64,000 bases of DNA, from positions 124,001-188,000 of the forward strand of contig NZ_RXOE01000008.1 of the NCBI RefSeq assembly GCF_003965815.1, in the 5' to 3' direction. The notes below the pieces were generated by a model. It made no database searches. It was not told the origin of the DNA and saw only the letters and a program-made list of their open reading frames with translations. Below are positions 47,576 to 49,899 of this stretch, piece by piece. The DNA is from Variovorax gossypii (GTDB lineage Bacteria > Pseudomonadota > Gammaproteobacteria > Burkholderiales > Burkholderiaceae_C). Numbering within the stretch: the first letter of the stretch is position 1; every line of letters begins with the position of its first letter. A program made the position numbers and the translations under genes.

Positions 47576-48328
47576 ATGCAAGCCTTGTATGTCTATGTGG
47601 TCGCCGGCGCCGTGCTGGCGGGTTTCGTGCAGGGCCTGTCGGGCTTTGCGTTCGGCCTGGTGGCGATGTCCGTCTGGGCGTGGACCCTGGAGCCACAGCT
47701 TGCCGCCGTGCTCGCCTTGTTCGGGGCGCTGACGGGGCAGGTGATTGCCGCGGTCACCGTGCGGCGCTCCTTCGACAAGAGCGTTCTCTGGCCCTTCGTG
47801 CTCGGCGGGTTGGTCGGGGTGCCGTTCGGCGTTTGGCTGCTGCCGCACCTCGATCTTGTCGTCTTCAAGCTTTGTCTCGGTGTGTTGCTGGTGCTGTGGT
47901 GCCCTGCGATGCTGATGTCGCAGCATCTGCCGAAGGTCGAGTTCGGGGGGCGCGCGGCTGATGCTGTGGCTGGTGCCATCGGGGGAGCTATGGCGGGCAT
48001 CGGAGGGTTCTCGGGGACCATTCCTACGCTGTGGTGCACGTTGCGTGGGTTTCAGCGGGATACGCAGCGGGCTGTGATCCAGAACTTCAATTTGTCGATG
48101 TTGCTGGTGGCGTTCGGGATTCACGTTTTCAGCGGGAATATCGGGCGGGCTGTTGTGCCGTTGCTGGGGGTTGTTGCGCTGGCGGTTGCTGTGCCTGTTT
48201 TGTTGGGGGCTCGGCTTTATATCGGGATCAGTGAAGGGGCGTTTCGGAAGGTTGTTTTGGGGTTGTTGACGGCTTCCGGGGTGGCTTTGTTGGCTTCTGC
48301 TGTTCCTGCTTTGTTGGCTCGTGGCTGA
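47576..48328 (+). CDS. TSUP-family (TauE/SafE) membrane transporter
   Basis: 250-aa protein with eight hydrophobic segments and the TSUP duplicated pattern: GFVQGLSGFAFGLVAMSVWAW in the first half and IGGFSGTIPTLWCTLRGF in the second. It exports or imports sulfonates, sulfoacetate or other small anions. From about 47990 to the stop the coding strand becomes C-poor and T-rich (many GTT, TTG, GCT, GGG codons), unlike the first half and unlike the MFS gene before it. Confidence 0.88.
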   Translation: MQALYVYVVAGAVLAGFVQGLSGFAFGLVAMSVWAWTLEPQLAAVLALFGALTGQVIAAVTVRRSFDKSVLWPFVLGGLVGVPFGVWLLPHLDLVVFKLCLGVLLVLWCPAMLMSQHLPKVEFGGRAADAVAGAIGGAMAGIGGFSGTIPTLWCTLRGFQRDTQRAVIQNFNLSMLLVAFGIHVFSGNIGRAVVPLLGVVALAVAVPVLLGARLYIGISEGAFRKVVLGLLTASGVALLASAVPALLARG

Positions 48329-48379
48329 GGTTTGTTGGTTGTTTGCTTTCCGAGGCCGGGAGTTCCGCCCGGCGGCGGA

Positions 48380-48413
48380 CCTACTTTCTTTTGCTTCGCC
48401 AAAAGAAAGTAGG
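48380..48413. repeat. Left hairpin of the inverted-repeat element
   Basis: CCTACTTTCTTTTG (48380-48393) pairs perfectly with CAAAAGAAAGTAGG (48400-48413); loop CTTCGC. A 14-bp stem. Confidence 0.92.
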
Positions 48414-48914
48414 CAAAGAAAAGGCGACCCCACTGTCTGCGACCCCTTCGCTGTGCGAAGGGGCAACCTGCGGTGCTCGCGTTTCGCGGGGTCTCGCAGA
48501 ACTCGCTTCGCTCAAACAGCTGCGATCCCTGATCCGCGAAACGCTGCGCTCCTCGGCGCAGCCAGAGGGAGGGGAGATGTGCGGGCCTTTGCTTCGCTCG
48601 GCCCCCAAGGCACAGCAAACGCTTCGCGCCTGCTGTGCTTGGAATAGAGCGTAGTGTCTGCAGGAGTCGCGGGGACTCAATATGTGGCCGAGCGAAGCGA
48701 AGGCCAATCCAGGCTGTTCAGAAGGCCGAGCGCAGCGATGGCCTGCTCGGTCTCCAACTCCCTTCTGGCTGCGCCGAGGAGCGCAGACGTAGGAGGGATA
48801 AGGGCCGCAGCTGTTTGAGCGAAGCGAGTTCTGCGGACCCCCTCCTACGTCGAGCACCGCAGGTTGCCCGTAGCGCAGCGAAGGGACGCAGACAGTAGGG
48901 TCGCCTTTCTTTTG

Positions 48915-48948
48915 CCTACTTTTCTTTGGCGAAGCAAAGAAAAGTAGG
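48915..48948. repeat. Right hairpin of the inverted-repeat element
   Basis: CCTACTTTTCTTTG (48915-48928) pairs perfectly with CAAAGAAAAGTAGG (48935-48948); loop GCGAAG, the complement of the left loop. The C position inside the T-run differs from the left hairpin, but pairing is preserved in both. Confidence 0.92.
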
Positions 48949-48993
48949 TCGGCCGCCGGGCCGAGACCCGGCCCCGGGAAGCAAACACTCCGC

Positions 48994-49899
48994 TTACCGA
49001 GGCAAAGCCAAAGCAAACGGCAAACTGACAACCCCCAGCAAGGTAGACAAAGTCACCAGCCCAGCCACGTAGGGCCCGTTGTACCCCATGCGAGCCGCCA
49101 ACACATAAGCACTAGAAGCAGTAGGCACAGCAGAAAACGCCATCAACACAGCCCCCTGCGCAGCATCGAGCCGCAACAACCGAGCCAACCCCCAGGCCAC
49201 CAACGGCAGGAACAGATGCCGTATAGCCAGCACGGACACCGCCAGCGTCTTCCCTGCCCCCAGAGTAGAGAACTTCATCCCCGCCCCCGCGGCCAGCAGC
49301 CCGAGCGCCAGCGACGCAGCCCCGATTCGCGTAAGCGTAGGCGTGGCCCACGTAGGCACCGTGAGCCCCAGCACATTGGCCAGCAACCCCGCCACGGTCG
49401 CGACGATCAACGGATTGCGCACCAGCTGCCGCACGAACCCCGTCTGCGCATGCCGCGTCATAGGCCACACGGCCGCGATGTTGAAGATGGGCACGCACAC
49501 GCCGATCAGCACGGCGATCAGCAGCAGTCCCTCGGAGCCTCCGAGCCGTTCGGCCAGTGCCAGGCAGATGAAGGAGTTGAAGCGGAAGGCGATCTGCGCG
49601 CTGGCCGCGTGGTCGCGCCGGTCGATGTGGGTGCCCAGGCCCGGGATGAAGGGCAGGGCATAGGCCAGCGCGATGCCGCAGGCTCCTACGCCGAAGCCCG
49701 CGGTGAGCAGGCTCGAGGTCGCGCCGAAGTCGAGCGGGCTGCGCACGATGGAGTGGAACAGCAGTACAGGAAAGAGAAAGTAGTAAACCAGGCTCTCGAC
49801 CTGGTCCCACACGCGACGATCGAGGGCGGTGTAGCGGCAAAGGAGCCAGCCGATGGCGATGAGGGAGAAGTCGGGGAAGAGCAGCTGCGCGTAATTCAC
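48994..49899 (-). CDS. AEC-family (auxin efflux carrier-like) transporter
   Basis: 301-aa membrane protein with about ten hydrophobic segments in two inverted halves: LLFPDFSLIAIGWLLCRYTALDRRVWDQVESLVYYFLFPVLLFHSI and LAIRHLFLPLVAWGLARLLRL...FSAVPTASSAYVLAARMG. AEC proteins of this type move small organic acids. GTG start at 49899. Its last 300-400 coding bases, next to the inverted-repeat element, are T-rich and C-poor on the coding strand (TCT GCT GTG CCT ACT GCT), mirroring the TSUP gene on the other side. Confidence 0.9.
   Translation of the reverse strand: MNYAQLLFPDFSLIAIGWLLCRYTALDRRVWDQVESLVYYFLFPVLLFHSIVRSPLDFGATSSLLTAGFGVGACGIALAYALPFIPGLGTHIDRRDHAASAQIAFRFNSFICLALAERLGGSEGLLLIAVLIGVCVPIFNIAAVWPMTRHAQTGFVRQLVRNPLIVATVAGLLANVLGLTVPTWATPTLTRIGAASLALGLLAAGAGMKFSTLGAGKTLAVSVLAIRHLFLPLVAWGLARLLRLDAAQGAVLMAFSAVPTASSAYVLAARMGYNGPYVAGLVTLSTLLGVVSLPFALALPR

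What the first reader, a model, noticed from the sequence alone, without database searches (positions are those of the whole stretch)
48340..48987. 648-bp inverted-repeat element with compensatory changes in nested stems
Seen: the gap between two convergent genes is one mirror-symmetrical structure of about 290-bp arms. Corresponding inner stems in the arms have different sequences but both stay paired: CGTTTCGCGG/CCGCGAAACG (48480-48489/48534-48543) in the left arm and ACGTAGGAGGG/CCCTCCTACGT (48787-48797/48840-48850) in the right arm. The 14-bp hairpins also differ at matched positions (TTTCTTTT versus TTTTCTTT) with pairing kept, and the inner block CAGAACTCGCTTCGCTCAAA between the stems is conserved. 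Paired changes point to selection or recombination maintaining a folded DNA or RNA form, not random decay. Inference: a mobile or structural repeat family (large cruciform, bidirectional terminator, nucleoid-binding site or non-coding RNA), possibly spread between tail-to-tail genes.
Basis: partly seen in the sequence, partly recalled or inferred. Interest (0 to 1): 0.8.

Follow-up and report, generated by a model that had tools for sequence, protein, structure and literature searches.

The report
Paired triple-helix pseudoknot repeat element
A long DNA palindrome beside bacterial gene ends proves to be two mirror-image copies of a folded RNA-like structure, each ending in a knotted triple helix whose three strands appear to have changed together during evolution.

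Summary
Window 48340-48987 (a Variovorax genome) is a 648-bp imperfect inverted repeat. The genome holds six full copies, one half copy and a fragment. Matches occur in 89 of 100 genomes of the genus and 129 of 299 of the family. The arms are two related types, A and B. Read from the centre outward, each arm is a ~215-nt structured unit: covarying stems, a conserved UGUYUGAGC...GCGAGU loop and, near its outer end, an H-type pseudoknot whose third strand fits the hairpin as a parallel pyrimidine triple helix. In the lower hairpin G.U outnumbers A.C 72 to 4 on the outward strand, which points to RNA. A covariance model hits 95 of 369 genomes of the class, 78 of 272 genera. Variovorax copies sit just after stop codons, mostly between tandem genes, often at sites shared between species. 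Structure: strong. RNA level: likely. Exact function: not shown; RNA 3'-end formation and protection is my best guess.

The parts
48340..48987 (.). whole element, inverted repeat, arm A left and arm B right
48348..48566 (-). arm A, outward-reading structured unit (219 nt as aligned)
48764..48980 (+). arm B, outward-reading structured unit (217 nt as aligned)
48424..48427 (-). arm A pseudoknot stem S1, 5' strand (TCGC)
48415..48422 (-). arm A third strand (TTTTCTTT)
48380..48413 (-). arm A hairpin S2 (CCTACTTTCTTTTG / CAAAAGAAAGTAGG) with loop GCGAAG whose GCGA pairs with S1
48364..48379 (-). arm A outer GC hairpin; on the + strand a terminator-like hairpin followed by CCTACTTTCT
48501..48518 (-). 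arm A conserved loop motif TGTTTGAGCGAAGCGAGT
48480..48543 (-). arm A inner stem P2, CGTTTCGCGG/CCGCGAAACG (48534-48543 with 48480-48489) and what it encloses
48901..48904 (+). arm B pseudoknot stem S1, 5' strand (TCGC)
48906..48913 (+). arm B third strand (TTTCTTTT)
48915..48948 (+). arm B hairpin S2 (CCTACTTTTCTTTG / CAAAGAAAAGTAGG) with loop GCGAAG whose GCGA pairs with S1
48949..48964 (+). arm B outer GC hairpin; on the - strand a terminator-like hairpin followed by CCTACTTTTC
48812..48829 (+). arm B conserved loop motif TGTTTGAGCGAAGCGAGT
48787..48850 (+). arm B inner stem P2, ACGTAGGAGGG/CCCTCCTACGT (48787-48797 with 48840-48850) and what it encloses
48570..48760 (.). centre between the arms, with smaller inverted repeats; no sigma-70-like promoter found

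Best explanation
Shown by sequence comparison: the element is a pair of outward-facing copies of one structured unit. Reading 5'->3' from centre to edge: closing stem, inner covarying stem P2, conserved loop UGUYUGA-[small hairpin]-GAGU, then the S1 5' strand, a pyrimidine third strand, a 14-bp hairpin S2 whose loop pairs with S1 (H-type pseudoknot), and an outer GC hairpin. The third strand lies parallel to the purine strand of S2 and matches it base for base (U.A-U and C.G-C triples). Inferred: the unit works as RNA in the outward sense. Because the two units face outward, a transcript that crosses the element from either side carries one such unit near its 3' end. My best guess at the mechanism: the element forms and protects RNA 3' ends. 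The outer GC hairpin plus the U-rich hairpin strand slow or stop incoming transcription. In transcripts that cross the element, the triple-helix pseudoknot blocks 3'->5' exonucleases, much as the MALAT1/ENE triple helix does (recalled). Copies within a genome are partly kept alike, perhaps by gene conversion.
For: Third strand: all 143 distinct outward arms carry a perfect parallel run of at least 5 triples, 114 of 143 at least 8, in 18 strings, several of them length variants. With third strands dealt out anew, runs of 8 or more fall from 114 to about 47 of 164. Nine arms with a mirror-symmetric hairpin core AAAGAAA and one with AAAGAGAAA keep a matching third strand, so the rule is 'third strand matches hairpin', not 'third strand differs from hairpin'. 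S1: at least 4 Watson-Crick pairs in 111 of 143 arms, 26 distinct helices, fixed register; shuffled loops give a mean of 35, maximum 50 in 300. Strand: hairpin positions 10-14, G.U 72 against A.C 4 with no condition on those positions; inner stem P2 37 against 11; RNAalifold -49.7 outward against -40.6 kcal/mol inward on the same 33 arms, aligned anew for each strand. Setting: a called stop codon faces the element within 60 bp in 46 of 55 rows, 41 of 49 distinct Variovorax copies.
Against: No transcript was seen. Single arms between tandem genes lie sense 8, antisense 14, which does not fit a purely sense 3'-UTR role; some of these 'single' arms may have a partner that my scan missed. Stem P3 shows A.C 18, G.U 0; 12 of the 18 lie at two positions at the base of five related helices, but this goes against the RNA reading. 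32 of 143 arms do not reach 4 pairs in S1. If the outer hairpins ended incoming transcripts efficiently, the outward pseudoknot would rarely be made in mRNA. No sigma-70-like promoter was found in the element. No U-tract follows the outer hairpin in the outward sense. RT-PCR with oligo(dT), as in PMC3521395, is not strand-specific, and the later sRNA-seq paper PMC5719362 does not name candidate 684 in its main text. Counts of arms are not corrected for relatedness.
Confidence: 0.5

Rival explanations
1. DNA-level element: the arms are folded single-stranded DNA (intrastrand triplex) that acts as ends of a non-autonomous mobile element or as a recombination/replication structure, like BoxC/PIT motifs.
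For: Outward-facing pair like transposon ends (37 outward pairs, 5 inward pairs, 57 single, 2 other of 101 groups); same pyrimidine-purine-purine topology as BoxC on the inward strand, a motif reported to fold as DNA in vitro (PMC4666352, abstract and parts read); presence and absence at the window's site in relatives; both arms are kept in most pairs whatever the gene direction.
Against: G.U:A.C 72:4 on one strand is an RNA-like signature; many sites are shared between species; no match in the phage collection at E 1e-5; the 3.1-kb pair in L271 encloses no transposase that I could recognise by eye in its translated ORFs (not searched with profiles).
Confidence: 0.25
2. Trans-acting small RNA genes: two divergent sRNA genes share a central control region and each ends in the triple-helix pseudoknot.
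For: Head-to-head units, loop motif of conserved sequence, independence of neighbouring gene direction, RF02421 sRNA next to arms in L271.
Against: No promoter-like site in the window copy and no terminator-like site at its outward ends; several similar copies per genome with unrelated neighbours.
Confidence: 0.15
3. Plain bidirectional intrinsic terminator that happens to be large.
For: Outer hairpins followed by T-rich tracts on both sides, just after gene ends.
Against: Explains neither pseudoknot, third strand, loop motif nor the 200-nt conserved arm; terminator-like sites 3 found against 1.6 in shuffles.
Confidence: 0.07
4. Selfish palindrome kept symmetrical only by gene conversion between arms and copies, without a selected fold.
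For: The six own copies are 90-94% identical, while their full-length orthologues elsewhere are 82-93%, so copies are partly homogenised.
Against: Homogenisation is not general: in G049 some paralogues are only 84-89% alike. Arms A and B stay different; the third-strand rule and S1 pairing are within one arm and hold in single arms too.
Confidence: 0.03

Closest known systems
BoxC / PIT / TMECO intrastrand triplex motifs (PMC4666352: abstract, sections 15 and 16, text parts 2 and 3 of 10 and a term search seen)
   Same: Short pyrimidine-purine hairpin plus a third strand, interspersed, sometimes in inverted pairs (five sites in E. coli MG1655), many copies in proteobacterial genomes.
   Different: TMECO is G/C-rich, 34-37 nt, purine motif; the paper's main text has no 'pseudoknot' and neither 8-mer of this motif.
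REP / BIME, GTAG- and CGTC-tagged palindromes (PMC3733652 and PMC2817692, passages)
   Same: Extragenic palindromes, predominantly between tandem and convergent genes, often close together in opposite orientation.
   Different: 20-40 bp with an unpaired tag; here 400-800 bp and no fixed tag (the four bases are paired and vary).
[quoted passage not shown] telomerase RNA and MALAT1/ENE recalled)
   Same: Two interleaved stems with a third strand in the major groove.
   Different: Interspersed repeat near gene ends in many genera; about 8 consecutive triples with covariation; no ligand or poly(A) partner known.
Rfam RF02421 Bp1_684 (Burkholderia sRNA)
   Same: In L271 it begins inside the outer strand of the arm's hairpin and runs on, same strand.
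   Different: Covers the region outside the arm, not the pseudoknot; the window element itself has no match.
ERIC, NEMIS/Correia, RPE and other small bacterial repeats (PMC2229807, passages)
   Same: Intergenic, structured, some proposed to act in RNA stability.
   Different: About 100-155 bp in the passages seen; 'triplex' and 'pseudoknot' do not occur in that text.

Membership tests
H-type triple-helix pseudoknot | Hairpin loop pairs with an upstream strand (two interleaved stems) | tested here: met
   111 of 143 arms with 4 or more Watson-Crick pairs, 26 helices
H-type triple-helix pseudoknot | Loop 1 forms parallel pyrimidine triples with the purine strand of stem 2 | tested here: met
   by covariation only: 143 of 143 arms with a run of 5 or more; no structure solved
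BoxC/TMECO | Consensus CCCTCNCCC-N3-6-GGGNGAGGG-N3-GGGNGAGGG | tested here: not met
   A/T-rich strands
BoxC/TMECO | Pyrimidine-purine-purine order on one strand | tested here: met
   inward strand of each arm
GTAG/CGTC REP | 20-40 bp palindrome with an unpaired tetranucleotide tag at one end | tested here: not met
   648 bp; the four bases pair and vary
REP with RAYT | Tyrosine transposase flanked by the repeat | not tested
   no search for the transposase was made
MITE | Terminal inverted repeats with target-site duplication | not tested
   ends are inverted but duplications were not examined
Known Rfam RNA | Match at gathering score | tested here: not met
   window 47800-49600, two matches at E 0.81 and 0.88, far below their cut-offs
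Intrinsic terminator | GC hairpin directly followed by a U-run | tested here: inconclusive
   two outer hairpins pass a loose scan, 3 sites found against 1.6 in shuffles

The most novel reading that the evidence does not exclude
A class of structured bacterial RNA not in Rfam, present in about a quarter of the genomes sampled from the window's class (Gammaproteobacteria in GTDB, by recall), often as outward-facing twins just after stop codons, whose 3' pseudoknot is locked by a covarying RNA triple helix that protects or defines RNA 3' ends: a bacterial counterpart of MALAT1/ENE-type 3'-end triple helices.
Probability: 0.35. Interest if true: 0.88.

Novelty: new variant of a known kind. Interest (0 to 1): 0.75.

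Why it matters
Base triples rarely leave a readable trace in sequence. Here third strands match their hairpins through many changes, and the pseudoknot stem varies too, in dozens of genera. If it acts as RNA, it gives a genetically tractable bacterial model of triple-helix RNA protection and a likely function for a repeat near gene ends that Rfam does not cover. If it acts as DNA, it is a selected, strand-specific triplex whose role in recombination could be tested.

Tried and rejected
Codon model trained on the window alone: it called wrong genes and was replaced by one trained on 30 annotated genes of a Variovorax record, all 30 3' ends recovered on that same record. It still missed the left gene of the window copy.

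Autonomous version: the 3.1-kb outward pair in L271 and the 1.1-kb pair in L302 hold ORFs in which I recognised no transposase; judged by eye, no profile search.

'Third strand must merely differ from the hairpin': rejected by ten mirror-symmetric arms.

Sense 3'-UTR role for single arms: not supported (8 sense, 14 antisense).

General concerted evolution: I first took it as general; one search shows it in G000 and G061 but not clearly in G049 and G016, so I now claim it in part only.

Phages and E. coli: no match at E 1e-5. Hairpin pattern in viral contigs: 53 stretches; 17 distinct arm-like structures in them by a loose scan, some clearly low-complexity; not followed.

Common function of neighbours: none apparent in ten flanking proteins of five own copies.

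Two Rfam hits on TwoAYGGAY in L278 (43.7 bits, cut-off 43, and 39.3) noted, not pursued.

One search crashed in its last print after giving its counts; one search repeated the analysis with changed settings.

Full report
WHAT IS THERE. The window lies in a Variovorax genome (relatives). 48340-48987 is an imperfect inverted repeat with arm blocks 80-90% complementary and very stable predicted folds on both strands. It fills the gap between two convergent ORFs. The genome has six full copies, one half copy and a 92-base fragment, and 13 hairpins of this type at up to 3 mismatches, all in these copies. The six own copies are 90-94% identical to one another.

SPREAD. 89 of 100 genomes of the genus match and 129 of 299 in the family, 76 of 141 genera. 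A plain pattern for the central hairpin occurs in 27 of 398 genomes of the phylum sample; all 27 are listed as own genus, family, order or class, and the reversed control pattern gave zero in the listing. A covariance model of the hairpin plus upstream strand (R1, 60 arms) hits 95 of 369 genomes of the class, 78 of 272 genera. Named plasmid or replicon records with matches are from Variovorax, Comamonas, Diaphorobacter, Paraburkholderia, Pasteurella, Pseudoalteromonas and Aeromonas, most over the hairpin only. There was no match at E 1e-5 in the phage records or in complete E. coli genomes.

THE ARM. Seen from the centre outward, the arm ends in: S1 5' strand, pyrimidine third strand, hairpin S2, outer GC hairpin. 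Arm A has hairpin strand AAAAGAAA and third strand TTTTCTTT; arm B has AAAGAAAA and TTTCTTTT. Each third strand, laid parallel to the purine strand, gives U.A-U and C.G-C triples throughout.

COVARIATION OF TRIPLES. From all loci then in hand, viral ones left out, a scan for hairpins with an upstream pyrimidine tract gave 164 distinct sequences. Of these, 21 were set aside because a purine tract follows the hairpin and the triple run is under 6; by inspection of the list they are arms read inward. All 143 left have a perfect run of at least 5 triples: 9 in 7 arms, 8 in 107, 7 in 21, 6 in 5, 5 in 3; 18 third-strand strings, several of them length variants. With third strands dealt out anew among the 164, runs of 8 or more fall from 114 to about 47; in the earlier run 115 of 165 full matches against a mean of 48, maximum 60 in 200 shuffles. 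The scan required pyrimidines upstream, so it is not blind to a third strand, but it did not ask for a match. Nine arms with a mirror-symmetric core AAAGAAA and one with AAAGAGAAA separate the triple rule from mere avoidance. One own copy, L005, carries the B-type hairpin and B-type third strand in both arms: hairpin and third strand changed together there, by mutation or by conversion from the other arm.

THE PSEUDOKNOT. The hairpin loop pairs with the bases just before the third strand: at least 4 Watson-Crick pairs in 111 of 143 arms; 32 arms do not reach this. The loop side starts directly after the hairpin strand in 108 of 111, and the other side ends one base before the third strand in 98 of 111. 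There are 26 distinct helices. Shuffled loops give 35 on average, 50 at most in 300. On a MAFFT alignment of 60 arms the 18 pairs of S1 and S2 have 86% paired cells against 75% shuffled and at most 59% when slid; S1 alone has 63%.

WHICH STRAND. With no condition on hairpin positions 10-14, 139 outward arms show 598 Watson-Crick, 72 G.U, 4 A.C and 21 other pairs. A.C here would be G.U on the opposite strand. The inner stem P2 gives 37 G.U to 11 A.C. P3 gives 0 to 18; 12 of the 18 lie at two positions at the base of five related helices, but they count against. RNAalifold on the same 33 arms, aligned anew for each strand, gives -49.7 kcal/mol outward and -40.6 inward. I take this as selection on the outward single strand, most simply RNA.

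REST OF THE ARM. A motif UGUYUGAGC-[hairpin of variable length]-GCGAGU lies about 90-140 bases upstream of the end of the hairpin's first strand; 118 distinct arms carry it together with the pseudoknot end, in 36 sequence forms. In one search it, or a looser form, was found in 283 of 398 scan rows (rows overlap, because one arm can give two). Rows without it include L190 (Pasteurella multocida), L191 and L271's relatives, and L209 and L279-L281.

PAIRING AND PLACE. In 101 groups of arms from loci L159-L186, L188-L217 and L271-L320, mostly other genera but with a few Variovorax, 37 are outward pairs, 5 inward pairs, 57 single, 2 more complex. 'Single' includes partners missed by the scan or cut by contig ends. 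In Variovorax a first set gave 26 tandem, 8 convergent, 1 divergent of 35. The larger set of 55 rows (49 distinct copies, six fetched twice) gives 38 tandem, 9 convergent, 1 divergent and 1 unknown after removing repeats; in 41 of the 49 a called stop codon faces the element within 60 bases. One group of six rows (L095, L104, L119, L324, L329, L333) shows gaps of 637-665 bases, probably an uncalled gene.

HISTORY. Both flanking proteins match between loci for 120 pairs, which include pairs of a copy with its own second fetch, so many sites are old. Full-length comparisons of own copies with orthologues elsewhere run from 82% (L004/L340) to 93% (L005/L323), while own copies among themselves are 90-94%; the two copies of G061 are 91.5% alike but 82-85% to full-length orthologues in G000 and G016. 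That is concerted evolution in these genomes. It is not general: in G049 several paralogues are 84-89% alike, less than some orthologues in G016 and G051 (up to 96%). At the window's own site the neighbour gene was found in 11 of 80 relatives' loci: five have gaps of 1-21 bases, two (L012, L060) keep only a short palindrome like the element's ends, L028 has a partial copy, the other three are rearranged or longer. L014 holds a copy that runs to its contig end. The element can therefore be lost or gained.

FUNCTION. Position after stop codons, outer hairpins followed by T-rich strands for incoming transcripts, and an outward pseudoknot that any crossing transcript carries near its 3' end suggest a role in forming and protecting RNA 3' ends. 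Against it: single arms are not biased to the sense strand (8 sense, 14 antisense) and no transcript was seen.

PRIOR WORK. Intrastrand triplex motifs are known as DNA elements (PMC4666352). I saw its abstract, sections 15 and 16, two of ten stretches of its text and a term search; the main text does not contain 'pseudoknot' or these 8-mers. I found no paper on this element in searches of an open-access library; most subscription papers are not in it, and I saw listings only, apart from the passages cited. The earlier report of such motifs in Haemophilus influenzae, known to me only through that paper, may include relatives.

Noticed in passing
L278 2437-2506 (-) and 2801-2865 (+): In a genome with 41 hairpin matches (G582, unnamed) two stretches near an arm hit Rfam TwoAYGGAY around its cut-off (43.7 and 39.3 bits, cut-off 43), about where the inner arm domain should lie.
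   Followed up: no
L012 and L060, gap between the two ORFs flanking the window's site: Close relatives keep only a short palindrome (TGTTTGCTTTCCGGGGCCGGG... in L012) at the window's site, like the two ends of the element joined: remnant or precursor.
   Followed up: partly
L205, L285, L286 (genome G774): Apparently one-armed forms near gene ends between tandem genes, the arm in either orientation.
   Followed up: partly
L218-L270: 17 distinct arm-like structures in viral contigs by a loose scan, some probably low-complexity chance matches.
   Followed up: no
window 48570-48760 and both arms: GCTTCGC/GCGAAGC recurs in many of the hairpin loops; as DNA d(GCGAAGC) is recalled as an unusually stable mini-hairpin.
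   Followed up: no
hairpin S2, position 12 from the loop: A T.G pair sits at this one position in 39 of 139 arms (G.U either way 47), perhaps a structural preference.
   Followed up: partly
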